From the NCBI RefSeq assembly GCF_003999255.1, contig NZ_CP034791.1, positions 307,501 to 371,500 on the forward strand: a stretch of DNA of 64,000 bases. The letters are read 5' to 3'. Positions 1-22,134 of the stretch are shown piece after piece. A program made the translations under genes and the position numbers. Source of the DNA: Caldicellulosiruptor changbaiensis (GTDB lineage Bacteria > Bacillota > Thermoanaerobacteria > Caldicellulosiruptorales > Caldicellulosiruptoraceae). The notes beneath the pieces are model-generated. The model worked only from the letters and a program-made list of their open reading frames with translations. It made no database searches and was not told where the DNA came from. Each line of letters opens with the position of its first letter. The stretch's first letter is position 1.

Positions 1-1662
<1,662 letters not shown>

Positions 1663-1725
1663 AAAAAAACCAGTCTTACCCTATTCACTTGCGAGGCTGC
1701 TGAAAAAATGAATAGAGTAAACAAA

Positions 1726-1842
<117 letters not shown>

Positions 1843-2278: not shown

Positions 2279-2306
2279 TTGAAAAAAATGAATATGATTT
2301 TATAAA
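2279..2306 (+). promoter_or_regulatory. putative sigma-A promoter of the giant secreted-protein operon
   Basis: TTGAAA at 2279-2284 and TATAAA at 2301-2306 are separated by 16 bases, about 95 bases before the first ribosome binding site. The assignment rests on box match and position only. The region is very AT-rich, so a chance match is possible. Confidence 0.4.
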
Positions 2307-2400
2307 ATAGTAACATATTCTGAAGAAGACAATAACATAATTGAATTCAATTTACATTTTAGAAAAAACAAATTATATTTAGAAAGGAGCTATGATAGGA

Positions 2401-5400: not shown

Positions 5401-7227
5401 CCAGATGGCGACAATTTAACATACAAATGGATATGGGACGGAGGCCAGGCAGAGGGGAACCAGCCAGAGATTATTCTACCTGAGGGAACTACTAAAATAA
5501 TGCTTGTAGTAAATGATGGGAAAGTTGAATCAGAACCGGATTTTGTTAATGTAACTGTTGTTGGTACAAACAGTTTGAAAACTGACCTATTTACTGACAA
5601 ATATGAATATGAAAGAGGAGAAACTGTAAATATAAGTATATATGGTGAAAATAGCAGCAATTTAAAGACACAGTGGAAATTGAGAGTAGATATTTTAGAT
5701 AGGAATAAAAATTTGGTTGCAAATGTTGTTAATGACATACCAGTTGAGCTGTATGAGGGTGAGAAGAAAAACATATTATGCAAATGGGAAACAGGAACAA
5801 CATTAGCTGGTTATTATATTGTAAGAGCTACTTGGAAAAAAGAAAATGTTATAGCTGCTGTCAATGAATGCAATTTTGTTATCAAACCTGATGGGGAAAT
5901 TTATAACAGAGTGGTTACTGATAAAGTGGAATATTGTGCTGATGAAGATGTGAACATAACTGAAACAATCAAAAATGGCAGTACAAACAGTATTGAAAAG
6001 GGGCTTACTGTAAAGACAAAAATTATTAATTTAAATGGTGAAGAAGTATGGAGTAAAGTTACTAATATTGAGGAAATACTTCAGGGTGAGACAAAAACTA
6101 TAAAAAGTTCGTGGAATACTTCAAAGAGTAGTTTAGGAGATTACACGGTTGTTTCAGAGGTATACAAAGGCAATGAAGTAATCGCAAAAACTACCACAAT
6201 GTTCAGAATTATCGGAAGTACTTATAAAGGGCTAAGAGGAGAGCTTGAAGTCAAACCAAGAGTTATACGCTCAACAGATGATGTTATATTCGACTATGTT
6301 CTTACAAATACAGGGAATACAGAAATTGGTGCTATTACTTCGCAAGTAAAAATTATTAATCCTGTAAGTATGGAGATGGTTGATACATTAACAGAAAACA
6401 ATATAAATATAGGAGTTGGTCAAAGTGTATATATTAGTAATACATGGAAACATGCTCCATTAAAAAGAGGAACATATTTAGTAATTCTTGATGTTGTTTA
6501 TGATACAGAAAAAGTAACATTAGACAGTGATTATATACTTGTAAAAGGTTCAGAGAAATTATCAAGTCCAGCATTTGGTTATACCTTATTTTCGTCGAGC
6601 AGTGTAAATCCATTGGAGATTTATGTTTATGAAGGCTGTGTAAATGGAGATGTTCATAGCAATAGCAATATTCAATCTGCTGGGACAACGTTGAATATAA
6701 ACGGCACCTGTTCAAGTGTTGGTGTAATAAACACATGGTTCCAGACAACAAACATATGTAATGTGCTAAGTAATGCTCCTGATGTAGATATACCTAACGT
6801 AGTAGAAGAAATTAGAAGTAAAGCTCAACAAAGTGCAACCACCGTAAATGAGATGAGGATTATTGATTATGGAAATGGAATCAATATACCAGGAAACGTC
6901 ATAAGTGAAAGTTGTATTGAAGTGAATGGGAATGATCTTACAATTGGCGGTTATTTGATATCTAAGAACAATATTTCATTTAATTTAAGAAGTGTAAAAA
7001 GCAGCTGTGAGAATGGAATTGTTATTTGTTCAGAAAATGGGGATATAAACATACATGCTTCAGAAGTAGAATTAAAAGGAATTATATATGCTCCTAATGG
7101 GACGGTATATATAAATGTGAATAAATTCAAATTAACAGGAAGAATTTATGCCAAGAGTATTAAAATAACATGCTCGCATTTTGAAGCAACACCAACAGCA
7201 CGTGATATTGAGATGCTAGAACCTTGA
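2401..7227 (+). CDS. giant secreted multidomain protein: alpha/alpha-toroid, propeller, PKD and CARDB-like domains
   Basis: About 1608 residues, beginning with an export signal (hydrophobic stretch ILSILLFLSFFFLLLSN). Residues about 40-310 contain at least four QxxDGSWG-type repeats (for example LQNSDGGWG, ISAQNADGSWG), typical of the prenyltransferase/terpene-cyclase toroid also used by secreted proteins. After a linker of beta-rich repeats comes a streptogramin-lyase-like propeller (about 540-870, repeated IDxxGxxWVA units). Two EF-hand-like calcium loops are embedded near residues 607-630. A PKD domain lies at about 968-1060 (motif YDPDGDNLTYKW). Three CARDB-like beta sandwiches follow, then a C-terminal beta-repeat region (about 1400-1608). 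The ATG at 2392 is only 2 bases after GGAG, so the ATG at 2401 (11 bases) is preferred. Probably cotranscribed with the next gene, 78 bases on. A surface role is inferred; its ligand is unknown. Confidence 0.85.
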   Translation: MSLRNIYANRILSILLFLSFFFLLLSNPLLPLAAESTQVDMNESINKAVRWLAQGMNWGDDYIQQIITASNIVKTLKKYKGTEEIIAKASEWLNLQETDNVDLIARVLPCISEEKRKQLISKIVELQNSDGGWGITNEYESDILDTCLVLDSLIEIEGHDHEIQRGVSYLISAQNADGSWGFIENTEGRIYATALARMVLVKYKEIYHVDIADVLDKSAQWLLTQKNENGLWGDPDTTVYLSTFVYKALYKDRWEEVKNIPEKIALLQQPNGSWENDAYITTIALDVLQSYIDEQKVELRDVKILVNGRETKQVKAKEFVEVLPIYQGKDIEVEVAIINPEHEKIFIPKDSLGRYFWFSDVNEEGIYSAEVVLKNKNGEVIASLVKNFNVEPFIKIKSAFIEVIPGVARLYSRITPKLRINLDADVNIKDEITVRANVYDYNHNIIFNKEMMSRLQNGLNQIEIGAFEPNTKNEGEYNITVTLYYKEKEIIKRYYKFKVLKQLSSVFTSDEDFDRGIMRGVNHEEVHDQLQLNKSAEVFPYIWIANAGEGTLSKIDTRTGQEIARYRTGPDSSTSPSRTAIDKEGNCWVANRGNGTVVKIALSGGIDKNKNGKIDTSYDVNNNGRIDSNEILPWGEDEAVLAVVQVGSSNSIPRAVAIDKEDRVWVGLYNERKFVVLNSDGTKTGIEINVPYGPYGATIDSNGILWAATLGSAIMKIDTNNNTYVKSYSVGGTTYGIVVDKKGIVWSPSFTSSGGIIRFDPVTEQYSIHYGDGSYGRGVAVDNEGNIWAAYSGNHVLNKFSPDGKFLMSVKLYPNGQGPIGVGVDGEGYVWAVNYSTSNAAKIKTDGTIVGFYPVGASPYTYSDMTGFHLKNITAHEGTWTVIHDEGEENCRWKSISWHEKKPAGTDITVSAKAANTLEELESKPYIQVQNNVEIKDLIGRFVQVEVKLKTSNLETPILEDISINSYNRAPIADAGDDITVQAGPDGKAKVLLDGTGSYDPDGDNLTYKWIWDGGQAEGNQPEIILPEGTTKIMLVVNDGKVESEPDFVNVTVVGTNSLKTDLFTDKYEYERGETVNISIYGENSSNLKTQWKLRVDILDRNKNLVANVVNDIPVELYEGEKKNILCKWETGTTLAGYYIVRATWKKENVIAAVNECNFVIKPDGEIYNRVVTDKVEYCADEDVNITETIKNGSTNSIEKGLTVKTKIINLNGEEVWSKVTNIEEILQGETKTIKSSWNTSKSSLGDYTVVSEVYKGNEVIAKTTTMFRIIGSTYKGLRGELEVKPRVIRSTDDVIFDYVLTNTGNTEIGAITSQVKIINPVSMEMVDTLTENNINIGVGQSVYISNTWKHAPLKRGTYLVILDVVYDTEKVTLDSDYILVKGSEKLSSPAFGYTLFSSSSVNPLEIYVYEGCVNGDVHSNSNIQSAGTTLNINGTCSSVGVINTWFQTTNICNVLSNAPDVDIPNVVEEIRSKAQQSATTVNEMRIIDYGNGINIPGNVISESCIEVNGNDLTIGGYLISKNNISFNLRSVKSSCENGIVICSENGDINIHASEVELKGIIYAPNGTVYINVNKFKLTGRIYAKSIKITCSHFEATPTARDIEMLEP

Positions 7228-7305
7228 GTGAGGTCTGGGATATATCTGCTTTTAGCGAACTAAAATCAAAGAAAAATAAAGATGTGTAGGGAGGATGGTT
7301 TTGGA

Positions 7306-10300
7306 ATGGTGCGCAGTAAATTATCAAGACTGATTGCTATTGTATTATTAGTTGCATTTATATTTAACTTTATACTTCCAACTCAACAGTTTGCTTTAGC
7401 AAAACAGGCAAAACAAGTTGAGAGTACTTTTAAAACAACGACGTTTGAGAGAAAATATGAAATTCCAAAAACCAGAACAAAACTTGGCTGTTTCACAGAT
7501 GAAATATATAAACTGTATGAGAAGCTCAAAGCAGACATTGAAGCCAATGACATAGATAAAGTGAAATCTGATATAAAAAACATAAAAAAGGTTTTAAAAG
7601 AGATTAGAAAATCTATTGTTACAGAACTTGACAAAAACGGTAAAATACTTGACAAGTTAAATGCAACTAAAGCCAAGCAAAGACATAATCGGTTTAAATC
7701 TGAATTGGAAAAGAAATTGAACAATTTTGAAGTCTTATTTGATAAGCTTGATGAACTTTTGAACCGCGTAAAAGAATACAAAGGTAAGGACATGGAACTT
7801 CTAAGGAACAAACTTCAGGAGATAGAGAATATATTAAATCCTGAACAGCCCCAGCAACCATTGGGTACACTTCCTCATAACAATGCTAGCTTAACTCCAC
7901 CTAAACCAGCAATTGGTAATGAAGCCGCAGCATCTGGGTATAGTGTTGCACAACAGGAGTCTTTGGCAAATGTGTTGCCAAAGACTCCTGTTGATGCGGA
8001 TTTGGCTGAGACTGCTGAGACAAAATTTACACAGGAAATCAAAAATTTAGCTGATTCACTCAAAACACCAGTGAGAATGTATGAATTTGTAAAAAACAAC
8101 ATAGATTTTGAGCCTTACTATGGTTCGAGAAAAGGTGCAACTGGCACGTTAAACCAGTTAGCCGGCAATGACTATGACCAAGCGTCGCTCTTAATAGCAA
8201 TGTTAAGATACAAGGGCATTCCTTCACGATATGTTAAAGGTATTGTTGAAGTGCCTGTGGAGAAGGTAAAAAATTGGACAGGTGCTCAAACTGCCGAAGC
8301 AGCTGTAAAAGTGCTTGGCTCTCTTGGTATACCTACCGAATCTGTTGTGTCTGGTGGTGCAATTGTTGCTGTTCGATTTGAGCATGTTTGGGTAGAAGCA
8401 TATGTACCCTATGATTACTATCGCGGCGCAGGGGCTATGAAAGGTCAAAAAGTGTGGGTTCCTCTAGATCCAAGTTTCAAACAATATAGTGTAGAATCGG
8501 GTTTGGATATTAAAGCAGTCACCAAAGTCACAGATGAGCAAATTATGGATGCATTTAAAGTTAGTGGTGAAAGAGATGGCGAGACCATCACGAAAATAGA
8601 TATCGAAAAGATGAGCAGCTTCATGGATGAGATTAAAGGGAAGCTGCAAGCCTACATTGAGGGGAATAATCTTAGTAATGTTGATACTAACAAATTGATA
8701 GGTGGCAAGAAAATAAAGCCTGAAAAGCTGGGGATGCTTCCTATTACATTGCCATTCAAGATAGTTACAGTACTTGCAAAAACAAATACGATACCTGATG
8801 CAAGTAGTGAGAAAATAGGATTTTCAATCAGGGGAAATGAACCGTTCAACTTGAATTTTTCAGGAACGTATGATTTTAGTATTCAGTTCAAGGCAGTTGA
8901 ACTATATGGTAAAAAGATAACTCTTTCATGGATTCCAGCCACACATGAGGACGAAGAAATTATCAATCATTACGGCGGGTTATTTAAAACACCTGCTTAT
9001 ATGGTTCAGTTGAAACCGCAGCTGAAAATAGATGGCCGGGTTGTTGCAGAAGGTAAGGCAGCAGGATTTGGAAATAGGCAGGAATTTACAATTGAGATAG
9101 GACATGTAGGAAGAACTGTTGAGAAGATAACCAACACTGTCACTGTTGGAGGATTTTATAGCATATGTTTTGATTTTGGCAAGATTGATGTTAAAGAACT
9201 TGATGCTATCAAAGAGAGAGTGTCAGTCATAAAAGATACAGTAAATGAGGAAAGCATTTATACAGATCAGGTAATGGGAGAGATTTTAAATAGTGCAGGT
9301 AAGACATACTTTGCTCAGCTTGATGCATTTAATTCAATTATGGCAAGAGCAATGAAGGTAAGTTCTGTTCGCCAAGTTAGTGAAGCAATGACTGGCTACA
9401 GCCCAACTGTAAAGTATATATTCAATACTCCTGTTGAGGTAACAGGCGGTTCGTTTTATATTGATGTAGACCATGATGTAATGGGTGTTGTTAGTCTTGA
9501 GGGTAAAAAGCAGAGCGAACGAGGATATATGATAACATCAGGAGTAATAGCTTCTGCGCTAGAGCATGGGATACACGAACAAATATTTAAATTACCTTCA
9601 GTTTCAGCAGTAAAGATACTTACAGAAGCAAGCAATAGATGGATACCTATATATACTATAGGCAAGGATAACATTGACAGAATAAATGAACTGGATGTTT
9701 CCGAGCATGTTAAAACAGATATCACCAATGCTGTTAACAGCGGGAAGATAGTAATAATACCGCAAAAAGAGATAAGGTACTACAACTGGCAGGGAGCAGG
9801 TTATATAGTTTTAGATTCGGAAACTGGCGCAGCAGGATACATGATAAGCGGAGGGCTTGCAGGTGGTTCTGCAGCTGTTGATGTTATGGTTGCGCTGGTT
9901 AGTTTAACTACACTTGCTTGGGCTATATTTGATGTACTGCAAATATCTTGTGCTTTAATTGCTGCAACCAATCCGCTTTTAGCAATTATATTCTATTCAT
10001 TGTTTGTAATCAGCACAATCAATCTCATTATGACGTTAGAAACAATAATTTTGTACTGGGAGACAAGAGATTATGAATATGCAAGCCAACTGTTTGGCGA
10101 GTTGATACTAAATATTGCTACATTTGGAGTATTTAAGGTAATTGAATATTTAGTACCGGGTATTATGACGTTATTCAAGACGGTAAAAAATCAACTGGAT
10201 GAGATAGCCCAGATAGCTGAACAATTTGGAGATGAAGTTGCTGAAGTTGCAGCAAGATACGGTCCTGATGCGATTGAGGCTATAAAGAGGTATGGTCCAG

Positions 10301-11985
10301 ATGCTGCGAGAGTGATCAACAATTATGGTGATAGTGCAGTAAAAGCTATGGCAAGAGGTATTGACCCTGCGCTTATTGAAAAAATGGACAGTTTAGCTGT
10401 TAAGGTAAATAAGCTTGAAAAATTCAAGATACTATCTCGTGAAGCAGCTCTCAAAGTTGTTGAGGCAGTGGAAACAATAAAGGACTACTTGAAAACATCT
10501 GTGGGAAGAGTTTTTGAAAAGATTAGGTCTGTGTACAGGATTGAAGATGAGTTAGATTTAACAACAGTGGATGGATGTGAATTTGGCTTATCAAGGGCAA
10601 AACTGAAGAAGAAATTAATAGAAGAGGGAATGAGTGAGGATTCGGCTGAAGAATCACTAAAATTTTTAGAAGAAGGTTGCTTTACCGGGGACACAATTGT
10701 TATTACAAAAGAGGGTAAAAAGAGGATAGATGAGATAAAGATAGGTGATTTTGTTTTTGCGAAGGATGTCAATACAGGTAAGACAGCTTATAAGAAAGTT
10801 AAACAGATTTATGTCAAGAGTGCGGAAGAAATTGTTCATATCAAAGTTGGAGATGATGAAGTAAAAACTACGAAATCGCACTTATTCTTTACAGATTCGG
10901 GCTGGTGGGAAGCAGCTGAGGATATAAAAAGTGGTGACAAAATAGTAACACAAGATGGTATAATGAAAGTAGTATATGAAGTAGAAGTTGAGAAGTTAAG
11001 CGCACCTGTAAAAATTTATAATCTCAACATAGAAGATTATCATACTTACTTTGTTGGAAGCTCTGGATTGCTTGTGCATAATGACTGCACACCTGAGGAG
11101 ACTAAACTTTGGGGAAAATGGCCAGATGTAGCCGAAAAATTTAAGATAATTGAAAAAGAAGGTTTTGGTAAACTTGACGAAGGCAGAAAATCTTTTACCC
11201 AGGAATTAGATAATGTTCTTATAGGAAATTCACTTTCGAAAGAAGAGTTTTTAGAGTACATTAAGAGATTTGTTCATGACGAAAAAGAACAAAAACTTCC
11301 ATCTGAAGTAAGGAAAATATTGCTTAAAATTAGAAGCTCAATACCAAAACCAGATGAGGATACAGTATTAATAAGAGTTCTAAGCCCTGATGAGGAGATG
11401 TTAAATAAATATTATATAAATGCGGAAAATCCATCTGTAAGTGGATTTATAGCGTGTGCAGCTGACCTTGAAGACACTAAGACTTGTGAGGAACTTGTAG
11501 CACGACTAAGGTTAGATTACAAAGGTTCACCATTTCCGGATCATAATAAGCTATCTGATATTAAATATAATGAAATATCATGCTATATTGTGGTATTTAA
11601 AACGAAGGACGTAGACAAGATAAAAATTCCAGTTAGCAAAAATATGTTTGAAGACATTTCGGATGAAGAGCTTGCTAATTTGGGTATTCGTAAAGAACAT
11701 TTTATTTTATTTGAGGAGGATGAAGAGTTAGCGGAAAGGTATCTTTCCAAACCATTCACAGGGACTGGATTTACAGCAACAGGTGCTGGATACAGTGAGC
11801 ATATAAGCAATGATGTAATGAATCAAATGAAAGACAAGGCAATACCGGAGTATTTTGTTCACTTTGAAAATCCCCTAAGTTTAAAAGATGGTGCATTTTT
11901 GATAGAAATGAGAGGAAATAAGAATATGAAAGTGATAGCAAGATATTCTGAAGTAGAAAAAAGATTTATACGTTTTGAGGAGTAA
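7306..11985 (+). CDS. secreted polymorphic toxin with transglutaminase-like and Hint domains
   Basis: About 1559 residues. The start at 7306 follows GGGAGG (7289-7294) by 11 bases; an upstream in-frame ATG at 7282 has no binding site. Order of parts: signal peptide (hydrophobic IAIVLLVAFIFNFI); a charged coiled-coil region (about 30-165); a transglutaminase-like domain (about 240-395) with the histidine in FEHVWVEAY and the aspartate in WVPLDPSF, but no cysteine at the usual nucleophile position (GNDYDQASLL); a beta-rich middle; a strongly hydrophobic segment (about 850-940); a helical YGPDA repeat; a Hint domain from Cys1125 (CFTGDTIV) to LLVHN (1259); and a C-terminal domain of about 300 residues that I cannot assign. 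This layout matches secreted polymorphic toxins in which Hint self-cleavage releases the C-terminal toxin. The last 2363 bases are duplicated downstream. Confidence 0.85.
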   Translation: MVRSKLSRLIAIVLLVAFIFNFILPTQQFALAKQAKQVESTFKTTTFERKYEIPKTRTKLGCFTDEIYKLYEKLKADIEANDIDKVKSDIKNIKKVLKEIRKSIVTELDKNGKILDKLNATKAKQRHNRFKSELEKKLNNFEVLFDKLDELLNRVKEYKGKDMELLRNKLQEIENILNPEQPQQPLGTLPHNNASLTPPKPAIGNEAAASGYSVAQQESLANVLPKTPVDADLAETAETKFTQEIKNLADSLKTPVRMYEFVKNNIDFEPYYGSRKGATGTLNQLAGNDYDQASLLIAMLRYKGIPSRYVKGIVEVPVEKVKNWTGAQTAEAAVKVLGSLGIPTESVVSGGAIVAVRFEHVWVEAYVPYDYYRGAGAMKGQKVWVPLDPSFKQYSVESGLDIKAVTKVTDEQIMDAFKVSGERDGETITKIDIEKMSSFMDEIKGKLQAYIEGNNLSNVDTNKLIGGKKIKPEKLGMLPITLPFKIVTVLAKTNTIPDASSEKIGFSIRGNEPFNLNFSGTYDFSIQFKAVELYGKKITLSWIPATHEDEEIINHYGGLFKTPAYMVQLKPQLKIDGRVVAEGKAAGFGNRQEFTIEIGHVGRTVEKITNTVTVGGFYSICFDFGKIDVKELDAIKERVSVIKDTVNEESIYTDQVMGEILNSAGKTYFAQLDAFNSIMARAMKVSSVRQVSEAMTGYSPTVKYIFNTPVEVTGGSFYIDVDHDVMGVVSLEGKKQSERGYMITSGVIASALEHGIHEQIFKLPSVSAVKILTEASNRWIPIYTIGKDNIDRINELDVSEHVKTDITNAVNSGKIVIIPQKEIRYYNWQGAGYIVLDSETGAAGYMISGGLAGGSAAVDVMVALVSLTTLAWAIFDVLQISCALIAATNPLLAIIFYSLFVISTINLIMTLETIILYWETRDYEYASQLFGELILNIATFGVFKVIEYLVPGIMTLFKTVKNQLDEIAQIAEQFGDEVAEVAARYGPDAIEAIKRYGPDAARVINNYGDSAVKAMARGIDPALIEKMDSLAVKVNKLEKFKILSREAALKVVEAVETIKDYLKTSVGRVFEKIRSVYRIEDELDLTTVDGCEFGLSRAKLKKKLIEEGMSEDSAEESLKFLEEGCFTGDTIVITKEGKKRIDEIKIGDFVFAKDVNTGKTAYKKVKQIYVKSAEEIVHIKVGDDEVKTTKSHLFFTDSGWWEAAEDIKSGDKIVTQDGIMKVVYEVEVEKLSAPVKIYNLNIEDYHTYFVGSSGLLVHNDCTPEETKLWGKWPDVAEKFKIIEKEGFGKLDEGRKSFTQELDNVLIGNSLSKEEFLEYIKRFVHDEKEQKLPSEVRKILLKIRSSIPKPDEDTVLIRVLSPDEEMLNKYYINAENPSVSGFIACAADLEDTKTCEELVARLRLDYKGSPFPDHNKLSDIKYNEISCYIVVFKTKDVDKIKIPVSKNMFEDISDEELANLGIRKEHFILFEEDEELAERYLSKPFTGTGFTATGAGYSEHISNDVMNQMKDKAIPEYFVHFENPLSLKDGAFLIEMRGNKNMKVIARYSEVEKRFIRFEE

Positions 11986-11998
11986 GGAGGCGATACTG

Positions 11999-13417
11999 AT
12001 GCTATTTAGGATGTTGTATGGATGTGAGAAAGTCTGTGTTTACAGAGGCAAAGAATATTGTTATGAAAATTGCTATATCCCGGGGACTTACATTTTGAAA
12101 GGATACAGATTAATATCGACAGACGAAGAAGACGTTAAGTTGAGAGGATTTAGACCGGTGGAAGGGGAGAGAGGGATTTATGAGAAGGTAGTGTTAGTGG
12201 ATGATGTGACAGCTGTGTATGAAAGGAAGTGGCAAATAAGATACAAGGGATACTGGGTTCAAAAATACTATGGGTGGTTTGTTACATCTTCTGTAAATGA
12301 GATACAAATAATAAAATCTGCGAAAGAAAATGAGGGATATGGATTTTTAGACATAAGTGAGAATGCAGGACCAGATAACAGGGATTTTGTAAAGACGATA
12401 GATGTGCTTGATTTGGATGAGGTAATAGAGGTTTGGGAAGTTAAGGACGGCTACAGCAGATATTTGGACAGGATGGGAGAGGATGAAGAGAAGAAAGGGG
12501 GTGAAGAGGCAGAAGCGGAGAAGGAGAGGGATGGAGTTGAGAGGGGGTATTATGCAGATGGCAGATTGAAGTATGAGATATATTACAGCAAGGGCAAAGA
12601 GCACAGGGGGGATGGACCTGCGTATGTGAAATATTACGACAATGGGAAGAAGGAGATAGAGATATATTATCGAGGAGGGAAGGTTCACAGGGAAGACGGA
12701 CCTGCGTATATAAGATATTCATACAGAGGGGAAGTTGTTGCGAAGGTGTATTATGTTGATGGGAAGGTTCACAGGGAAGGAGGGCCAGCGAAGATTGAGT
12801 ATTACGAGAGTGGGAAAGTTAAGGAGGAGTGCTATTACAGGGAAGGTAAGCTTCACAGGGAAGATGGACCTGCGAGAGTAGTGTATTACGAGGATGGAGC
12901 GAAGAAGATAGAGGAGTATTACATTGAAGGCAAGCATCACAGGGAAGGAGGACCTGGGTATATATGTTATTTCAGAGATGGTAGGATAAGAGGAGAGACG
13001 TATTTTAAAGAAGGCAGGAGGCACAGGGAAGGAGGACCAGCGAATGTGTGGTATTATGACAATGGAGTGAAGGAATTTGAGGAGTATTTCAAGGGGGGTA
13101 AACTGCACAGAGAAGATGGGCCTGCGGCAGTGTGGTGGTACAAACACGGTCAGGAAAAGGCAGTGGAATATTGCATTGAAGGTAAGTGGCGTAGGGGAGA
13201 AGAGCCCTGCATGGTGTGGTATTATGAAGATGGCAGGGTAAAAGAAACATTTTATAGATTGCCACCTTTGAGTGAAGAAGAAAGGGAAAAGTACAAATAT
13301 AAGTTTTATACAGCAAGATATTACGAAAATGGAAATCCAATGTGGATTGAATGGGGGGGAAGAGAAGGGAGTTCATACTACAATGAAGATGGTTCTGAGC
13401 ATAAATTGGTTTACTGA
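11999..13417 (+). CDS. YwqK-type repeat protein, probable immunity protein (copy A)
   Basis: About 472 residues, no signal peptide, so probably cytoplasmic. The ATG at 11999 sits 8 bases after GGAGG and 13 bases after the toxin stop codon, implying a tight operon. Residues 1-160 form a domain I do not recognise, with several cysteines near the start. An acidic linker follows (about 160-180), then about eight repeats of 26-28 residues with the pattern GKxHREDGPAxxxYYxxGxxxxExYY. These resemble the MORN-like repeats of the YwqK antitoxin family, whose founding member lies beside a secreted toxin gene in Bacillus subtilis. The location directly after a Hint toxin supports an immunity role, but that remains inference. 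The coding strand is unusually rich in G and A compared with neighbours. Confidence 0.8.
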   Translation: MLFRMLYGCEKVCVYRGKEYCYENCYIPGTYILKGYRLISTDEEDVKLRGFRPVEGERGIYEKVVLVDDVTAVYERKWQIRYKGYWVQKYYGWFVTSSVNEIQIIKSAKENEGYGFLDISENAGPDNRDFVKTIDVLDLDEVIEVWEVKDGYSRYLDRMGEDEEKKGGEEAEAEKERDGVERGYYADGRLKYEIYYSKGKEHRGDGPAYVKYYDNGKKEIEIYYRGGKVHREDGPAYIRYSYRGEVVAKVYYVDGKVHREGGPAKIEYYESGKVKEECYYREGKLHREDGPARVVYYEDGAKKIEEYYIEGKHHREGGPGYICYFRDGRIRGETYFKEGRRHREGGPANVWYYDNGVKEFEEYFKGGKLHREDGPAAVWWYKHGQEKAVEYCIEGKWRRGEEPCMVWYYEDGRVKETFYRLPPLSEEEREKYKYKFYTARYYENGNPMWIEWGGREGSSYYNEDGSEHKLVY

Positions 13418-13489
13418 GCGTTAGCAGGAATAATAAAAGAAGATGAGGCAGATAAAAACACAGGATTAAATAGGAAGGTGATTGTGGGG

Positions 13490-14581
13490 ATGAGGAAGGC
13501 AGTGCAGGTTTCATGTGGAGATAATTATACGCTTGCGGTATTAAGTGATGGTAGTGTATGGGCATGGGGTTCGAACTGGAATGGGGAGTTAGGGATAGGT
13601 GAGAAGGGTGGCATTTTTGCCACTCCTGTGCGAGTAAAAGGATTAGAGGATATAGTGATGGTGTCAGCGGGGAAAGACCATAATCTTGCGCTGAGGAGAG
13701 ACGGGACAGTATGGGCTTGGGGCAGGAATGAAGGCGGGCAGCTTGGAGATGGGACGAGGGAGAGCAAGTTAGTTCCTGTGCAAGTAAAAGGCTTGAAAGA
13801 TGTAGTGATGGTAGCTGCGGCGGAGGGGCATTCTTTGGCATTGAAAAGAGATGGGACAATTTGGGTTTGGGGGTTTAATAGTGATGGAGTATTGGGTTTA
13901 AACGAGATAGTAACCCATTGTGAGGTTCCGCTGAAGGTAGAGGGTTTGGGTGAGATAGTATCGATAGCGACGAACAGATATTTAGTTTTTGCATTGAGGA
14001 AGGACGGCAGGATAGTAGCATGGGGGAAAAGATGGCACAAACATCTATGTGGTGATATAGATTTATGGGACAAAAGAAAGTTTATTATAATAGATAAGTT
14101 AGAAGACATAGTGGCGATAGCATTGGGTGAGAATCATGCGGTGGCGTTGAGGCAAGATGGCAGAGTGTTGACATGGGGAGTTTTTGAGTATGATTTGTGG
14201 AGAGAGAATGAACGTATTTTCCCTGTGCTTATTGAGAGAGAGTTATTGGAAGATGTGAGGATGATAGCGGCTGGGTATAAGCATGCGCTGGTGGTGAAAG
14301 GAGATGGCAGTGTGTGGGCATGGGGTATGAACAGGAGAGGACAGCTTGGAGATGGGACTGTAGTGAGCAAGGTTTTTCCTGTTAGAGTGGGGGGGATAGA
14401 AGGAGTTGTATCGATATCAGGAGGAGGCTGGCACACAGTAGCAGTTAAGGAAGATGGGAGTATCTGGGGCTGGGGATTTAACTATTTTGGGCAGGTAGGC
14501 AGCAGGGATGGTGTTGTGAGGGAAGAGAATTATGTAATAACAACTCCTATTGAGGTTTTTGATAAGTCTTTCTTTTGTTGA
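13490..14581 (+). CDS. RCC1-like seven-bladed propeller protein (copy A)
   Basis: About 363 residues consisting almost entirely of seven RCC1-type repeats of about 50 residues, with the pattern GxxHxxALxxDGxVWAWGxNxxGQLGDGT. No signal peptide or membrane segment, so probably cytoplasmic. The start is ambiguous: GTG 13478, GTG 13484 and ATG 13490 are in frame after GGAAGG at 13473-13478. I chose the ATG. It follows the YwqK-type gene by about 70 bases and belongs to the same duplicated block. Function is unknown; a binding role for the released toxin or a second immunity function fits the context but is not shown. Copy A ends in FFC and copy B in FFG. Confidence 0.8.
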   Translation: MRKAVQVSCGDNYTLAVLSDGSVWAWGSNWNGELGIGEKGGIFATPVRVKGLEDIVMVSAGKDHNLALRRDGTVWAWGRNEGGQLGDGTRESKLVPVQVKGLKDVVMVAAAEGHSLALKRDGTIWVWGFNSDGVLGLNEIVTHCEVPLKVEGLGEIVSIATNRYLVFALRKDGRIVAWGKRWHKHLCGDIDLWDKRKFIIIDKLEDIVAIALGENHAVALRQDGRVLTWGVFEYDLWRENERIFPVLIERELLEDVRMIAAGYKHALVVKGDGSVWAWGMNRRGQLGDGTVVSKVFPVRVGGIEGVVSISGGGWHTVAVKEDGSIWGWGFNYFGQVGSRDGVVREENYVITTPIEVFDKSFFC

Positions 14582-14639
14582 TAATGCGAAATAGCTACAG
14601 TTTTGCAGGTTTGTGTTGGTAAAAGAGAGTTGAGCAAAA

Positions 14640-14667
14640 TTGGGTTTATATTTTTTTGCAGTATAAT
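14640..14667 (+). promoter_or_regulatory. putative promoter of the hemerythrin-like gene
   Basis: TATAAT at 14662-14667 is preceded after 16 bases by a weak -35 (TTGGGT, 14640-14645). It lies about 65 bases before the proposed start. The perfect -10 box is the main support. Confidence 0.4.
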
Positions 14668-14733
14668 ATTTTTAAAAAAGTTGCTGAAAGAAATAATACC
14701 GAAAAAGAAATATTAGAGAGAGGGTGATTGGAA

Positions 14734-15150
14734 GTGTCGCAGATAGAATGGAAAGAACAGTATACTTTAGGTGATGAAGGTTTCGACGAGGATATCAAAA
14801 AAATTGTTGAGAGAATGAATAAAATTTTACATGCCTATGAACAGCCTGAAAGTCAAAAAGATGTTTTAGAAGAGCTACGCTTTTTGGGGAATAATTTAGC
14901 TATTAGTTTTTCACGTCAAGAATATCGCATGAAGAAGTATTTGTATCCGCCCTATTTTTCACACAAGAGAGAACACGACAGCTTTCTTGAAAAATATAAA
15001 AAGTATCGAGAGGAAGCAGGAAAGGAAGGAGAGTTAGTAGCTGCTGTTATGAAGATAAGAGGGATTATTGAAGAGTGGTTAGAGAACCATGTAATTGTAG
15101 AGGATAAGAAACTAGTAGCTTTTTTAAAAAAGAAGGAGCAGGGGATGTAG
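14734..15150 (+). CDS. degenerate hemerythrin-like protein
   Basis: About 138 residues with the layout of a single-domain bacteriohemerythrin: an opening IEWKEQYTLG, four predicted helices and a length typical of the family. The later ligand motifs remain (HKREHD and NHVIVEDK, matching HxxxH and HxxxxD). Where the family has the first histidine (DxxHK) this protein has DEDIKK, and where it has HFxxEE this has SFSRQE, so two of the usual histidine ligands appear replaced. Oxygen binding by a normal di-iron site is therefore doubtful. GTG 14734 has AGAGGG 9 bases upstream; TTG 14728 is an alternative. The gene sits alone between the two copies of the repeat and is not itself duplicated. Confidence 0.75.
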   Translation: MSQIEWKEQYTLGDEGFDEDIKKIVERMNKILHAYEQPESQKDVLEELRFLGNNLAISFSRQEYRMKKYLYPPYFSHKREHDSFLEKYKKYREEAGKEGELVAAVMKIRGIIEEWLENHVIVEDKKLVAFLKKKEQGM

Positions 15151-15172
15151 ACAAAAGGTTCAAGAACCTGCA

Positions 15173-15207
15173 AAAGCTATCTGCCACAATGGTAGACAGC
15201 TTTTTGT
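15173..15207 (+). terminator. intrinsic terminator after the hemerythrin-like gene
   Basis: AAAGCTATCTGCCA (15173-15186) pairs with TGGTAGACAGCTTT (15190-15203), with one mismatch and one wobble pair. A short T run follows. Confidence 0.7.
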
Positions 15208-15348
15208 TTATAAGATATCAGGCTTTTTCTGTAAAGGTCAATATCAAAGTGTTTTTTTCCAAGGTCAGTTGAAAGCAGTATCTTAATCATTTGAAATCAT
15301 ATTTGATTTGAGTATTACCTACGCATATTTATTAAATCTAAAAACATG

Positions 15349-17711
15349 CAGAAGCAAGCAATAGATGGATACCTATATATACTATAGGCAAGGATAACAT
15401 TGACAGAATAAATGAACTGGATGTTTCCGAGCATGTTAAAACAGATATCACCAATGCTGTTAACAGCGGGAAGATAGTAATAATACCGCAAAAAGAGATA
15501 AGGTACTACAACTGGCAGGGAGCAGGTTATATAGTTTTAGATTCGGAAACTGGCGCAGCAGGATACATGATAAGCGGAGGGCTTGCAGGTGGTTCTGCAG
15601 CTGTTGATGTTATGGTTGCGCTGGTTAGTTTAACTACACTTGCTTGGGCTATATTTGATGTACTGCAAATATCTTGTGCTTTAATTGCTGCAACCAATCC
15701 GCTTTTAGCAATTATATTCTATTCATTGTTTGTAATCAGCACAATCAATCTCATTATGACGTTAGAAACAATAATTTTGTACTGGGAGACAAGAGATTAT
15801 GAATATGCAAGCCAACTGTTTGGCGAGTTGATACTAAATATTGCTACATTTGGAGTATTTAAGGTAATTGAATATTTAGTACCGGGTATTATGACGTTAT
15901 TCAAGACGGTAAAAAATCAACTGGATGAGATAGCCCAGATAGCTGAACAATTTGGAGATGAAGTTGCTGAAGTTGCAGCAAGATACGGTCCTGATGCGAT
16001 TGAGGCTATAAAGAGGTATGGTCCAGATGCTGCGAGAGTGATCAACAATTATGGTGATAGTGCAGTAAAAGCTATGGCAAGAGGTATTGACCCTGCGCTT
16101 ATTGAAAAAATGGACAGTTTAGCTGTTAAGGTAAATAAGCTTGAAAAATTCAAGATACTATCTCGTGAAGCAGCTCTCAAAGTTGTTGAGGCAGTGGAAA
16201 CAATAAAGGACTACTTGAAAACATCTGTGGGAAGAGTTTTTGAAAAGATTAGGTCTGTGTACAGGATTGAAGATGAGTTAGATTTAACAACAGTGGATGG
16301 ATGTGAATTTGGCTTATCAAGGGCAAAACTGAAGAAGAAATTAATAGAAGAGGGAATGAGTGAGGATTCGGCTGAAGAATCACTAAAATTTTTAGAAGAA
16401 GGTTGCTTTACCGGGGACACAATTGTTATTACAAAAGAGGGTAAAAAGAGGATAGATGAGATAAAGATAGGTGATTTTGTTTTTGCGAAGGATGTCAATA
16501 CAGGTAAGACAGCTTATAAGAAAGTTAAACAGATTTATGTCAAGAGTGCGGAAGAAATTGTTCATATCAAAGTTGGAGATGATGAAGTAAAAACTACGAA
16601 ATCGCACTTATTCTTTACAGATTCGGGCTGGTGGGAAGCAGCTGAGGATATAAAAAGTGGTGACAAAATAGTAACACAAGATGGTATAATGAAAGTAGTA
16701 TATGAAGTAGAAGTTGAGAAGTTAAGCGCACCTGTAAAAATTTATAATCTCAACATAGAAGATTATCATACTTACTTTGTTGGAAGCTCTGGATTGCTTG
16801 TGCATAATGACTGCACACCTGAGGAGACTAAACTTTGGGGAAAATGGCCAGATGTAGCCGAAAAATTTAAGATAATTGAAAAAGAAGGTTTTGGTAAACT
16901 TGACGAAGGCAGAAAATCTTTTACCCAGGAATTAGATAATGTTCTTATAGGAAATTCACTTTCGAAAGAAGAGTTTTTAGAGTACATTAAGAGATTTGTT
17001 CATGACGAAAAAGAACAAAAACTTCCATCTGAAGTAAGGAAAATATTGCTTAAAATTAGAAGCTCAATACCAAAACCAGATGAGGATACAGTATTAATAA
17101 GAGTTCTAAGCCCTGATGAGGAGATGTTAAATAAATATTATATAAATGCGGAAAATCCATCTGTAAGTGGATTTATAGCGTGTGCAGCTGACCTTGAAGA
17201 CACTAAGACTTGTGAGGAACTTGTAGCACGACTAAGGTTAGATTACAAAGGTTCACCATTTCCGGATCATAATAAGCTATCTGATATTAAATATAATGAA
17301 ATATCATGCTATATTGTGGTATTTAAAACGAAGGACGTAGACAAGATAAAAATTCCAGTTAGCAAAAATATGTTTGAAGACATTTCGGATGAAGAGCTTG
17401 CTAATTTGGGTATTCGTAAAGAACATTTTATTTTATTTGAGGAGGATGAAGAGTTAGCGGAAAGGTATCTTTCCAAACCATTCACAGGGACTGGATTTAC
17501 AGCAACAGGTGCTGGATACAGTGAGCATATAAGCAATGATGTAATGAATCAAATGAAAGACAAGGCAATACCGGAGTATTTTGTTCACTTTGAAAATCCC
17601 CTAAGTTTAAAAGATGGTGCATTTTTGATAGAAATGAGAGGAAATAAGAATATGAAAGTGATAGCAAGATATTCTGAAGTAGAAAAAAGATTTATACGTT
17701 TTGAGGAGTAA
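15349..17711 (+). pseudogene. 5'-truncated toxin cassette: hydrophobic segment, Hint and toxin domain (copy B)
   Basis: This copy encodes the same C-terminal 786 or so residues as the toxin at 7306-11985, including the hydrophobic segment, Hint domain (Cys codon at 16404) and terminal toxin domain. The frame is closed upstream by TAA at 15339-15341. The first in-frame ATG is at 15567, with no ribosome binding site and no signal peptide. It therefore looks like an unexpressed or poorly expressed orphan cassette, not a working gene. Comparable orphan toxin-plus-immunity modules are known downstream of contact-dependent toxin genes, where recombination can swap them into the full-length gene. 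The frame is intact to its stop, so decay has not begun. Confidence 0.8.
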
Positions 17712-17724
17712 GGAGGCGATACTG

Positions 17725-19143
17725 ATGCTATTTAGGATGTTGTATGGATGTGAGAAAGTCTGTGTTTACAGAGGCAAAGAATATTGTTATGAAAATTGCT
17801 ATATCCCGGGGACTTACATTTTGAAAGGATACAGATTAATATCGACAGACGAAGAAGACGTTAAGTTGAGAGGATTTAGACCGGTGGAAGGGGAGAGAGG
17901 GATTTATGAGAAGGTAGTGTTAGTGGATGATGTGACAGCTGTGTATGAAAGGAAGTGGCAAATAAGATACAAGGGATACTGGGTTCAAAAATACTATGGG
18001 TGGTTTGTTACATCTTCTGTAAATGAGATACAAATAATAAAATCTGCGAAAGAAAATGAGGGATATGGATTTTTAGACATAAGTGAGAATGCAGGACCAG
18101 ATAACAGGGATTTTGTAAAGACGATAGATGTGCTTGATTTGGATGAGGTAATAGAGGTTTGGGAAGTTAAGGACGGCTACAGCAGATATTTGGACAGGAT
18201 GGGAGAGGATGAAGAGAAGAAAGGGGGTGAAGAGGCAGAAGCGGAGAAGGAGAGGGATGGAGTTGAGAGGGGGTATTATGCAGATGGCAGATTGAAGTAT
18301 GAGATATATTACAGCAAGGGCAAAGAGCACAGGGGGGATGGACCTGCGTATGTGAAATATTACGACAATGGGAAGAAGGAGATAGAGATATATTATCGAG
18401 GAGGGAAGGTTCACAGGGAAGACGGACCTGCGTATATAAGATATTCATACAGAGGGGAAGTTGTTGCGAAGGTGTATTATGTTGATGGGAAGGTTCACAG
18501 GGAAGGAGGGCCAGCGAAGATTGAGTATTACGAGAGTGGGAAAGTTAAGGAGGAGTGCTATTACAGGGAAGGTAAGCTTCACAGGGAAGATGGACCTGCG
18601 AGAGTAGTGTATTACGAGGATGGAGCGAAGAAGATAGAGGAGTATTACATTGAAGGCAAGCATCACAGGGAAGGAGGACCTGGGTATATATGTTATTTCA
18701 GAGATGGTAGGATAAGAGGAGAGACGTATTTTAAAGAAGGCAGGAGGCACAGGGAAGGAGGACCAGCGAATGTGTGGTATTATGACAATGGAGTGAAGGA
18801 ATTTGAGGAGTATTTCAAGGGGGGTAAACTGCACAGAGAAGATGGGCCTGCGGCAGTGTGGTGGTACAAACACGGTCAGGAAAAGGCAGTGGAATATTGC
18901 ATTGAAGGTAAGTGGCGTAGGGGAGAAGAGCCCTGCATGGTGTGGTATTATGAAGATGGCAGGGTAAAAGAAACATTTTATAGATTGCCACCTTTGAGTG
19001 AAGAAGAAAGGGAAAAGTACAAATATAAGTTTTATACAGCAAGATATTACGAAAATGGAAATCCAATGTGGATTGAATGGGGGGGAAGAGAAGGGAGTTC
19101 ATACTACAATGAAGATGGTTCTGAGCATAAATTGGTTTACTGA
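17725..19143 (+). CDS. YwqK-type repeat protein, probable immunity protein (copy B)
   Basis: Identical in translation to the copy at 11999-13417, with the same GGAGG ribosome binding site and ATG. Complete, so it could be expressed if a promoter reads into copy B, but I see no convincing promoter at its 5' end. In the orphan cassette it would be the cognate partner of the truncated toxin. An expressed second copy would add gene dosage only. Confidence 0.8.
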   Translation: MLFRMLYGCEKVCVYRGKEYCYENCYIPGTYILKGYRLISTDEEDVKLRGFRPVEGERGIYEKVVLVDDVTAVYERKWQIRYKGYWVQKYYGWFVTSSVNEIQIIKSAKENEGYGFLDISENAGPDNRDFVKTIDVLDLDEVIEVWEVKDGYSRYLDRMGEDEEKKGGEEAEAEKERDGVERGYYADGRLKYEIYYSKGKEHRGDGPAYVKYYDNGKKEIEIYYRGGKVHREDGPAYIRYSYRGEVVAKVYYVDGKVHREGGPAKIEYYESGKVKEECYYREGKLHREDGPARVVYYEDGAKKIEEYYIEGKHHREGGPGYICYFRDGRIRGETYFKEGRRHREGGPANVWYYDNGVKEFEEYFKGGKLHREDGPAAVWWYKHGQEKAVEYCIEGKWRRGEEPCMVWYYEDGRVKETFYRLPPLSEEEREKYKYKFYTARYYENGNPMWIEWGGREGSSYYNEDGSEHKLVY

Positions 19144-19215
19144 GCGTTAGCAGGAATAATAAAAGAAGATGAGGCAGATAAAAACACAGGATTAAATAGG
19201 AAGGTGATTGTGGGG

Positions 19216-20307
19216 ATGAGGAAGGCAGTGCAGGTTTCATGTGGAGATAATTATACGCTTGCGGTATTAAGTGATGGTAGTGTATGGGCATGGGGTTCGA
19301 ACTGGAATGGGGAGTTAGGGATAGGTGAGAAGGGTGGCATTTTTGCCACTCCTGTGCGAGTAAAAGGATTAGAGGATATAGTGATGGTGTCAGCGGGGAA
19401 AGACCATAATCTTGCGCTGAGGAGAGACGGGACAGTATGGGCTTGGGGCAGGAATGAAGGCGGGCAGCTTGGAGATGGGACGAGGGAGAGCAAGTTAGTT
19501 CCTGTGCAAGTAAAAGGCTTGAAAGATGTAGTGATGGTAGCTGCGGCGGAGGGGCATTCTTTGGCATTGAAAAGAGATGGGACAATTTGGGTTTGGGGGT
19601 TTAATAGTGATGGAGTATTGGGTTTAAACGAGATAGTAACCCATTGTGAGGTTCCGCTGAAGGTAGAGGGTTTGGGTGAGATAGTATCGATAGCGACGAA
19701 CAGATATTTAGTTTTTGCATTGAGGAAGGACGGCAGGATAGTAGCATGGGGGAAAAGATGGCACAAACATCTATGTGGTGATATAGATTTATGGGACAAA
19801 AGAAAGTTTATTATAATAGATAAGTTAGAAGACATAGTGGCGATAGCATTGGGTGAGAATCATGCGGTGGCGTTGAGGCAAGATGGCAGAGTGTTGACAT
19901 GGGGAGTTTTTGAGTATGATTTGTGGAGAGAGAATGAACGTATTTTCCCTGTGCTTATTGAGAGAGAGTTATTGGAAGATGTGAGGATGATAGCGGCTGG
20001 GTATAAGCATGCGCTGGTGGTGAAAGGAGATGGCAGTGTGTGGGCATGGGGTATGAACAGGAGAGGACAGCTTGGAGATGGGACTGTAGTGAGCAAGGTT
20101 TTTCCTGTTAGAGTGGGGGGGATAGAAGGAGTTGTATCGATATCAGGAGGAGGCTGGCACACAGTAGCAGTTAAGGAAGATGGGAGTATCTGGGGCTGGG
20201 GATTTAACTATTTTGGGCAGGTAGGCAGCAGGGATGGTGTTGTGAGGGAAGAGAATTATGTAATAACAACTCCTATTGAGGTTTTTGATAAATCTTTCTT
20301 TGGTTGA
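19216..20307 (+). CDS. RCC1-like seven-bladed propeller protein (copy B)
   Basis: Matches the copy at 13490-14581 except for the last residue (glycine instead of cysteine) and one silent change nearby. The same three possible starts exist (19204, 19210, 19216). The block of homology ends immediately after this stop codon, so the last codons of the gene mark the recombination boundary. Confidence 0.8.
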   Translation: MRKAVQVSCGDNYTLAVLSDGSVWAWGSNWNGELGIGEKGGIFATPVRVKGLEDIVMVSAGKDHNLALRRDGTVWAWGRNEGGQLGDGTRESKLVPVQVKGLKDVVMVAAAEGHSLALKRDGTIWVWGFNSDGVLGLNEIVTHCEVPLKVEGLGEIVSIATNRYLVFALRKDGRIVAWGKRWHKHLCGDIDLWDKRKFIIIDKLEDIVAIALGENHAVALRQDGRVLTWGVFEYDLWRENERIFPVLIERELLEDVRMIAAGYKHALVVKGDGSVWAWGMNRRGQLGDGTVVSKVFPVRVGGIEGVVSISGGGWHTVAVKEDGSIWGWGFNYFGQVGSRDGVVREENYVITTPIEVFDKSFFG

Positions 20308-20433
20308 TATTATTAGCCTGAAGTGAGAAAATTTGAAGCAAGAGGCGAATAGAGTATTATTTAGCTTTTGATGTGATGTTGCAAGGATAGTATGCTTATT
20401 CATTGTGCAAATAAATATAACAACTAAATGTTT

Positions 20434-21381
20434 TCAAAAAGCGAAATTCTCACTTGGCACTGGTACCTTTTCAAGTATCTCGTTTATCACATCTGACGAC
20501 TTTGTGTTTTTGATTATATATTGATTTTTGAGAAGAATCCTGTGGCTGAGGACAAAAGGAGCTAAGTACTTGACAAAATCAGGAAGAACAAAATCGTAGC
20601 CTCGGACAGCAGCGAGGCTTTGAGATGCACGCATAAGAGCAATGAAGCTTCTGTTGCTTGCAGGAAGCTGAACCATTTCGTGTTCTCTTGTGCTTTGACA
20701 AATTTCGTATATATAAGATAGAATATCTTCGTTTACATACACCTCTTTTATCTTTTCCTGAATCATTATTACCTCATCCTTTGCTACCACAGGTTCGATC
20801 TCATCAAGAGGATTTTTTTCTTTGAACCTTGTGAGCATCTGGATAGTCTCTTCTTTGTTTGTGTATCCTAAACTGAGCTTTATCAAAAACCTGTCAAGCT
20901 GCGCCTCAGGGAGAGGATATGTTCCCTGAATTTCAATGGGGTTTTGAGTAGCAATAACAAAAAATGGGTCTTCTAACTTATGTGTGATACCGTCAATTGT
21001 CACCTGTCTTTCTTCCATGCATTCAAGAAGACTTGACTGTGTTCTCGGAGTTGCCCTGTTTATTTCATCAGCCAGCAGTATATTTGTGAAAATTGGACCT
21101 GGTCTGAACTCAAACTCTTGTGTTTTCATGTTGAAGTAGTATATACCTGTCAGATCTGATGGCAGAAGGTCTGGCGTGAACTGAATTCTTTTGAAACTAC
21201 AATTTATAGATTTTGCAAGAGCCTTTGATAGCATTGTTTTTCCTGTGCCCGGGACGTCCTCTAAAAGAACATGCCCACCGGCAAAGAGAGATGTTATTAC
21301 AAGCTCAATTTGAGCTTCTTTTCCCACAATCACCTTTGATATGTTTTGGATAATCCTTCTTGCAACGTTGGCTATCTCCAT
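20434..21381 (-). CDS. MoxR-family AAA+ ATPase
   Basis: 315 residues. Walker A (DVPGTGKT, about residue 41-48), Walker B (LLADEINRATPRTQ) and the sensor region (ATQNPIEIQGTYPLPEAQLDRF) are all present, as in MoxR ATPases. These act as chaperone-like ATPases and usually sit with DUF58 and transglutaminase/DUF4129 genes. Here no DUF58 gene adjoins; a DUF4129 protein is encoded far away at 50043-51371. It points away from the VOC gene and toward the toxin repeats, about 125 bases from their end. Substrate and partner cannot be told from the sequence. Confidence 0.88.
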   Translation of the reverse strand: MEIANVARRIIQNISKVIVGKEAQIELVITSLFAGGHVLLEDVPGTGKTMLSKALAKSINCSFKRIQFTPDLLPSDLTGIYYFNMKTQEFEFRPGPIFTNILLADEINRATPRTQSSLLECMEERQVTIDGITHKLEDPFFVIATQNPIEIQGTYPLPEAQLDRFLIKLSLGYTNKEETIQMLTRFKEKNPLDEIEPVVAKDEVIMIQEKIKEVYVNEDILSYIYEICQSTREHEMVQLPASNRSFIALMRASQSLAAVRGYDFVLPDFVKYLAPFVLSHRILLKNQYIIKNTKSSDVINEILEKVPVPSENFAF

Positions 21382-22102: not shown

Positions 22103-22134
22103 AATATTTTTTTGGGGAAGTGGGGAGTAAGAAT

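What the first reader, a model, noticed from the sequence alone, without database searches (positions are those of the whole stretch)
9623..20309. Near-perfect 4.96-kb direct repeat of a toxin/follower module around an unrelated gene
9623-14583 and 15349-20309 match at a fixed offset of 5726 bases. I found only two base differences, both within 20 bases of the 3' end. The hemerythrin gene between them is not repeated. A plain unequal crossover would have copied it, so capture of an orphan cassette, later deletion, or gene conversion between two old cassettes is more likely.
Basis: partly seen in the sequence, partly recalled or inferred. Interest (0 to 1): 0.75.

Follow-up and report, generated by a model that had tools for sequence, protein, structure and literature searches.

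The report
Duplicated toxin cassettes kept identical
A heat-loving, plant-degrading bacterium carries a large secreted toxin gene followed by a second, headless copy of the toxin's business end with its protection genes, and comparison with two relatives indicates that the pair is old and that the copies overwrite each other, rather than being a fresh duplication.

Summary
The repeat is real: 9623-14583 and 15349-20309 differ at 2 of 4961 bases. The genome length equals that of Caldicellulosiruptor changbaiensis CBS-Z. The block is the 3' half of a Hint-containing polymorphic toxin, an immunity gene and an RCC1-repeat gene; copy 2 is an orphan without the toxin's export half. It lies in an island of about 18.5 kb between 5S rRNA and a MoxR gene, found in 3 of 12 genomes of the genus; in the other 9 rRNA abuts MoxR. 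The three carriers share the junctions. In one, the cassette-hemerythrin unit recurs, so hemerythrin can be repeated. Inside the block, copies of one genome resemble each other, not their positional counterparts: 44, 25 and 15 concerted sites against 1, 2 and 1. Over the last 26 bases this reverses: the two 'differences' are old markers. So the duplication is old, and gene conversion or equivalent exchange made the copies alike. The toxin end and its immunity domain form a pair also seen in other genomes of the phylum, with no Pfam or NCBIfam family found. Caveat: the hybrid assembly may hide a few interior differences.

The parts
1726..1842 (+). 5S rRNA gene at the end of an rRNA operon; left neighbour of the island
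   Evidence: Rfam RF00001, 101 bits; 23S rRNA at 1-1663
1854..20428 (+). Island of about 18.5 kb, present in 3 of 12 genomes of the genus; limits approximate
   Evidence: In 9 of 9 other genomes the rRNA match ends 30-153 bases from the MoxR match
2392..7227 (+). 1611-aa large protein with prenyltransferase-like repeats, beta-propeller and PKD-like domains; single copy, precedes the toxin in all three carriers
7282..11985 (+). Full toxin gene, 1567 aa: hydrophobic N-terminus, transglutaminase-like domain (aa 248-397), Hint (aa 1140-1268), C-terminal toxin domain
9623..14583 (+). Repeat copy 1: toxin from about codon 780, immunity gene, RCC1 gene
11086..11985 (+). C-terminal toxin domain of a family without a Pfam or NCBIfam entry
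11975..13417 (+). Immunity gene: N-terminal immunity domain (about 11999-12460) followed by weak MORN-like repeats
13478..14581 (+). RCC1-repeat gene, role unknown
14566..14576 (+). The two bases that differ from copy 2 (14566 and 14576; partners 20292 and 20302); old markers of copy position
14584..15348 (+). Spacer of 765 bases, present twice in G002
14728..15150 (+). Bacteriohemerythrin-like gene in the spacer
15349..20309 (+). Repeat copy 2, the orphan cassette
15567..17711 (+). Orphan toxin ORF, 714 aa from its first ordinary start codon, without the export half; whether it is translated is unknown
17701..19143 (+). Immunity gene of copy 2
19204..20307 (+). RCC1-repeat gene of copy 2; its last residue differs from copy 1
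20434..21381 (-). MoxR-type ATPase gene (name from recall), right neighbour of the island

Best explanation
A polymorphic-toxin island with one full toxin operon and one old orphan cassette. Most likely an incoming stretch (toxin 3' end, immunity gene, RCC1 gene, hemerythrin cargo) recombined into the toxin gene and pushed the former 3' half with its immunity genes downstream, where it kept the original right flank; this gives cassette-hemerythrin-cassette in one step. Gene conversion, or exchange between arrays with the same net effect, then homogenised the cassettes within each lineage and left old differences beside the right edge. Shown: shared junctions, concerted interior, edge markers, recent movement of the island between species. 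Inferred: the displacement step; conversion rather than repeated unequal exchange; and the function, namely that the full toxin is exported and cut at Hint, its C-terminal domain poisons neighbours, the next protein protects, and the orphan serves as spare immunity and template. I put homogenisation of old copies at about 0.85, displacement as the origin at about 0.5.
For: The same junction bases in all three carriers. Concerted sites 44, 25, 15 against positional sites 1, 2, 1 and crossed sites 0, 0, 0 for the three genome pairs. G000's copies differ at 0 sites over 1-4935, but over the last 26 bases the first copies of G000 and G011 are identical and the later copies of all three genomes are identical. 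Both toxin copies of G011 share a frameshift absent from the four full copies of G000 and G002. Longest identical runs: within genomes 4943, 2252 and 1484, between genomes at most 843. Empty site in 9 of 9 non-carriers. Single-copy island part differs at 22, 13 and 9 of 7231 sites, the downstream flank by 4.14-6.03%. Immunity assignment.
Against: G011's copies still differ at 8 sites and G002's first two at 166, 143 of these in or near the variant toxin segment, so homogenisation is incomplete. Only one site (4944) separates copies by position in all three genomes; 4954 does so in two. Short collapsed stretches in the hybrid assembly could exaggerate identity in G000 (and recall). Under simple unequal exchange G002's middle copy would be expected to carry the first-copy marker; it does not, but neither is a conversion tract mapped. 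No direct evidence for the displacement step: both copies now carry the same toxin.
Confidence: 0.7

Rival explanations
1. Recent tandem duplication of cassette plus hemerythrin in this strain alone, followed by deletion of the second spacer.
For: Near-identity of the copies and a fixed offset; none of the 12 genomes shows a one-unit array, so the first step cannot be watched.
Against: The same junctions and the copy-position marker in two other genomes; a shared deletion would have to predate all three.
Confidence: 0.05
2. Unequal exchange between arrays (gain and loss of whole cassette-hemerythrin units), not gene conversion, keeps the copies alike.
For: G002 has three cassettes and two spacers; loss of one unit would also homogenise.
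Against: G002's two spacers differ at 11 of 765 bases, so the third unit is not a recent copy; its middle copy carries the later-copy marker next to the spacer; homogenised flanks enclose a variant toxin segment in its second copy.
Confidence: 0.3
3. The array formed by single-crossover (Campbell-type) integration of a circle holding one cassette and hemerythrin, rather than by displacement from a linear import.
For: Gives the same map in one step; the left repeat limit would be the end of homology (inference).
Against: No circle or plasmid carrying the unit was looked for; no evidence separates it from displacement.
Confidence: 0.25
4. The near-perfect identity in this genome is partly an assembly effect: interior differences collapsed, edge differences kept.
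For: Unicycler hybrid assembly with 2 x 150 bp Illumina reads (PMC6395861; behaviour of the program from recall); the only differences lie within 18 bases of the unique right flank.
Against: Nanopore reads above 4000 bp were used; two independently sequenced genomes have the same array with unequal copies. This could hide a few differences, not create the second copy.
Confidence: 0.15

Closest known systems
Orphan toxin/immunity modules of CDI (cdiA-CT/cdiI) and Rhs loci (PMC4927057 and PMC3967940, passages read)
   Same: A toxin 3' fragment plus immunity gene behind a full toxin gene, in the same direction, with homology to the main gene that allows recombination, on a genomic island.
   Different: Main and orphan cassette are here the same over nearly 5 kb and are homogenised; the orphans in the passages carry other toxins. 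A hemerythrin gene, not a transposase, lies between the copies.
Polymorphic toxins exported by Sec, with Hint and an N-terminal transglutaminase-like domain (PMC3482391, passages read)
   Same: Hydrophobic N-terminus, transglutaminase-like domain, Hint just before the C-terminal toxin domain, immunity gene next.
   Different: No RHS repeats in the Pfam scan; toxin and immunity domains match no Pfam or NCBIfam family.
maf genomic islands of Neisseria (PMC4287609, passages read)
   Same: Full toxin gene followed by C-terminal cassettes, some without an initiation codon, each with an immunity gene.
   Different: maf cassettes are described as alternative C-termini; here the cassette repeats the same C-terminus.
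Displacement arrays of T6SS effector-immunity genes in Vibrio cholerae (PMC5361080, passages read)
   Same: Incoming module placed ahead of the old immunity gene, giving arrays without a plain duplication.
   Different: There, different immunity genes remain and effectors are lost; here the displaced copy keeps an open toxin fragment and equals the main one.

Membership tests
Polymorphic toxin | Pretoxin processing domain before a C-terminal toxin domain | tested here: met
   PT-HINT, E 4.1e-31, aa 1140-1268
Polymorphic toxin | C-terminal domain shared with toxins that have other N-terminal parts | tested here: met
   Relatives behind other N-termini in 2 genomes outside the genus among 398 and in 9 of 249 of one order (one of the nine is among those two); one has a weak WXG100-like N-terminus below the Pfam cut-off
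Polymorphic toxin | Cognate immunity gene directly downstream | tested here: met
   Ten of ten loci have a protein of this kind next; profile of nine finds only copies of the window's protein above threshold among 1142 ORFs. The G175 relative is an exception: its next ORF looks different
Polymorphic toxin | Signal for export at the N-terminus | not tested
   Hydrophobic stretch seen by eye; no predictor run
Polymorphic toxin | Toxicity relieved by the immunity protein | not testable with these tools
   needs expression experiments
Orphan toxin/immunity module | Toxin 3' fragment without the export half, homologous to the main gene, with immunity gene | tested here: met
Orphan toxin/immunity module | Orphan toxin differs from the main toxin | tested here: not met
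   Identical in the window; in G002 the orphan has a variant segment (70% identity of the domain to the window's). So it is filed as orphan-like in build, with this usual trait missing in the window
Concerted evolution of repeats | Copies within a genome more alike than positional counterparts between genomes | tested here: met
   44, 25, 15 against 1, 2, 1 sites; G002's variant toxin segment is the exception
Simple tandem duplication | Spacer copied with the unit | tested here: not met
   One spacer for two cassettes in the window and G011; G002 has two for three
Composite transposon | Insertion sequences at the ends of the block | tested here: inconclusive
   None recognised by eye among the window's ORFs there; insertions in G002 and G011 lie inside cassettes at different places; no transposase search was run
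ADP-ribosyltransferase/NAD glycohydrolase fold (toxin domain) | Clear structural match | tested here: inconclusive
   Foldseek 0 matches at E <= 0.001; second look best Z 4.1, rmsd 5.9, 154 aligned (NAD glycohydrolase); 14 of 16 rows are of that type by recall

The most novel reading that the evidence does not exclude
The array is a diversity engine: downstream cassettes are silent templates, and gene conversion moves variant toxin and immunity segments between them and the expressed gene, much as silent pilin loci do (analogy from recall). Hints: the cassette differs 4 to 6 times more between species than the single-copy part (63, 46, 35 of 4961 against 22, 13, 9 of 7231), and G002's orphan holds a variant toxin segment starting just after Hint, with changes in the neighbouring immunity gene, inside homogenised flanks.
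Probability: 0.25. Interest if true: 0.75.

Novelty: new variant of a known kind. Interest (0 to 1): 0.5.

Why it matters
Orphan toxin cassettes are discussed as fossils or as reserves (PMC4927057, passages). Three natural arrays with an edge marker indicate that orphan and main cassette can overwrite one another over almost 5 kb while the arrangement outlasts movement between species. That makes a question testable: does conversion spread new toxin-immunity alleles into the expressed gene, or erase them? It also warns against dating such duplications by their identity. The toxin domain and immunity domain are a recognisable pair with no entry found in the family libraries searched.

Tried and rejected
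Recent duplication in this strain: set aside because of shared junctions and markers. Assembly artefact as the whole story: set aside because of two other genomes; kept as a caveat for the interior count. Hemerythrin as the reason for the array: no link seen; its close form occurs only in the three carriers, while 12 of 12 genomes have a paralog of 46-51% identity. Defence systems: only one weak PADLOC match, E 0.032, to the toxin. Toxin class by sequence: no convincing Pfam, NCBIfam or PDB match. First structure model with 4 sequences was useless (pLDDT 33.9); with 14 sequences usable (80.6), but Foldseek gave nothing at E <= 0.001; the second look shows no match above Z 4.1, which excludes nothing. 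The scan of genome contigs with the toxin-domain alignment confirmed no relative, although genome search found some; the tool says records near the window may be left out. BLASTP of the immunity domain against one relative was weak (E 0.021), and hhalign gave a probability of only 39% (E 3e-4); the HMM search was clearer. The search with the whole immunity protein found 3 genomes outside the genus among 398, matching mostly the repeat part. PHROGs gave only Hint and RCC1 matches. The RCC1 gene was not searched in other genomes. Promoter-like sites in the spacer: 3, none on the + strand, against 3.7 in shuffles; one terminator-like site against 0.5 +/- 0.8, so neither stands out. Promoters inside the toxin gene were not tested.

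Literature: no paper on this locus, or on gene conversion between main and orphan polymorphic-toxin cassettes, was seen in the listings; the library holds open-access papers only. PMC3482391 mentions Caldicellulosiruptor once (a footnote) and RCC1 once (that passage was not shown).

Full report
Observation. The blocks 9623-14583 and 15349-20309 match at offset 5726 with mismatches only at 14566 and 14576; similarity ends abruptly on both sides. The genome, one contig of 2,905,633 bases, holds these two full copies and two short partial matches. That length is the one published for Caldicellulosiruptor changbaiensis CBS-Z, assembled with Unicycler from Nanopore and Illumina reads (PMC6395861, first of two parts read).

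Anatomy. Upstream lies the end of an rRNA operon, then a 1611-aa protein and a 1567-aa toxin with a hydrophobic N-terminus, a transglutaminase-like domain (aa 248-397), a Hint domain (aa 1140-1268) and a C-terminal domain. The usual cysteine position of the transglutaminase appears to hold tyrosine (sequence; motif from recall), as in the inactive transglutaminase domains described for such toxins (PMC3482391, passages). The toxin gene overlaps a gene for a 480-aa protein with MORN-like repeats that score just under Pfam's cut-off, followed by an RCC1-repeat gene. The repeat begins at about codon 780 of the toxin and ends at the stop of the RCC1 gene. Between the copies lies a bacteriohemerythrin-like gene. 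The second toxin fragment has no export half; its first ordinary start codon is at 15567.

Who has it. Of 12 genomes of the genus, 3 have the toxin (G000, G002, G011). The same 3 have the single-copy island part; a fourth has only one short match of 68%. In 9 of 9 others the rRNA match ends 30-153 bases from the MoxR match. In the class, 3 of 37 genomes carry the toxin, the same three. So the array is part of an island of about 18.5 kb between rRNA and MoxR.

Arrays compared. G000: full cassette, hemerythrin, orphan cassette. G011: the same, but each cassette holds an IS-like insertion at a different place, the second with a loss of 898 bases, and both toxin copies share a one-base frameshift in the Hint region. 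G002: full cassette, hemerythrin, orphan cassette, hemerythrin, third cassette interrupted by an IS-like element with a loss of 3618 bases. The junctions agree base for base over the 70 bases shown on either side, apart from one spacer base before G002's third cassette. Hemerythrin is thus unrepeated in the window but repeated in G002.

Concerted evolution. For G000-G002, G000-G011 and G002-G011 there are 44, 25 and 15 sites where each genome's first two copies agree and the genomes differ; 1, 2 and 1 sites group copies by position; none cross (4039 columns hold all six copies; G002's third copy was left out of these counts). The positional sites are repeat positions 4944 and 4954, that is 14566 and 14576. 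Over 1-4935 G000's copies differ at 0 sites; over 4936-4961 the first copies of G000 and G011 are identical, and the later copies of all three genomes, G002's third included, are identical; G002's first copy has the first-copy base at 4944 and the later-copy base at 4954. The longest identical runs are 4943 bases within G000, 2252 within G011 and 1484 within G002, against at most 843 between genomes. Against a perfect picture: G011's copies differ at 8 sites, and G002's first two at 166, 143 of them at 1485-2200.

Movement. The single-copy 7231 bases (partner gene and toxin N-terminal part) differ at 22, 13 and 9 sites, while 6188 aligned bases after the array differ by 4.48, 4.14 and 6.03% (G000-G002, G000-G011, G002-G011). 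So the island moved, or was exchanged, after these lineages parted. For G000-G011 the first 2000 alignment columns of the flank show no difference, as expected if exchange ran through homologous flanks. The cassette differs more: 63, 46 and 35 of 4961 for first copies against those 22, 13 and 9 (odds ratios 4.2, 5.2, 5.7; Fisher P 5e-10, 1e-8, 2e-7; sites are clustered, so these P values are too small). Either the cassette takes in outside variation or it changes faster.

Toxin and immunity. The C-terminal domain has relatives in 2 genomes outside the genus among 398 of the phylum and in 9 of 249 of one order (one genome is in both). Fourteen sequences, three of them from the carriers' arrays, share 16 invariant residues. 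In the ten loci the toxin ORF is followed at once by an ORF of 130-156 codons stop to stop; nine such proteins were aligned (L090's, close to L089's, was left out). In the G175 relative the domain is not at the end of the protein and the next ORF looks different. A profile of the nine finds, among 1142 ORFs of the window, carrier and empty-site loci, eight ORFs above threshold; all are copies of the 480-aa protein, six distinct ones since G000's are listed twice; the next ORF has E 0.83. Profile comparison agrees weakly (probability 39%, E 3e-4, 71 columns). So the N-terminal part of the 480-aa protein is probably the immunity domain. No convincing Pfam or NCBIfam family was found for either domain. 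A model of the toxin domain (pLDDT 80.6) has no Foldseek match at E <= 0.001; the second look lists mainly NAD-using enzymes of the ADP-ribosyltransferase type, at Z 4.1 or less: a lead, no assignment. In G002's second copy about 155 aa, starting about ten residues after Hint, are a variant (domain 70% identical to the window's). Between G002's first two copies the immunity gene then differs at 18 sites and the RCC1 gene at 5 (positions), which is suggestive only; within the immunity domain few residues change.

Reading. Orphan modules behind full toxin genes are well known: displaced 3' ends and possible reserves in CDI loci (PMC4927057, passages), recombination onto the main gene in Rhs (PMC3967940, passages), internal expression of Rhs toxins (PMC7043789, abstract and headings), cassettes with and without start codons in maf islands (PMC4287609, passages), displacement arrays in Vibrio (PMC5361080, passages). 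Displacement explains cassette-hemerythrin-cassette in one step: the incoming module brings hemerythrin, the old cassette keeps the MoxR flank. This step is inferred; single-crossover integration of a circle gives the same map. What the comparison supports is that the duplication is older than the differences between the carriers' cassettes and that exchange between copies made them alike. Conversion is preferred over unequal exchange because G002's second spacer is an old variant (11 of 765 bases) and because homogenised flanks enclose a variant toxin segment, but the two are not cleanly separated.

Limits. Three carriers, one genome per species; reads not available here; Unicycler's handling of repeats is from recall; no function was tested; the names of G002 and G011 rest on recall of genome size.

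Noticed in passing
11086-11985 and 11999-12460; L088-L097: A toxin domain and immunity domain pair without a convincing Pfam, NCBIfam or PDB match, found behind different N-terminal parts in other genomes of the phylum.
   Followed up: partly
L033, L034 (G011), G011:C1 about 297000-309500: In G011 the full toxin is interrupted by an IS-like element and both toxin copies share a frameshift, while the first copy's immunity and RCC1 genes are intact: toxin lost, protection kept.
   Followed up: partly
20310-22300: Between G000 and G011 the first 2000 alignment columns after the array show no difference, then about 3-10% per 500 bases for most windows: a possible end of an imported tract.
   Followed up: no
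13478-14581: RCC1-repeat gene always in the cassette, role unknown; two short DNA matches to its 3' part lie near 1.11 Mb of the same genome.
   Followed up: no
2392-7227: 1611-aa protein with prenyltransferase-like, beta-propeller and PKD-like regions precedes the toxin in all three carriers; possibly a surface partner.
   Followed up: no
L092 and L093: In two relatives the toxin domain is joined to a short hydrophobic N-terminal part and lies beside transporter-like genes instead of WXG-type genes.
   Followed up: no
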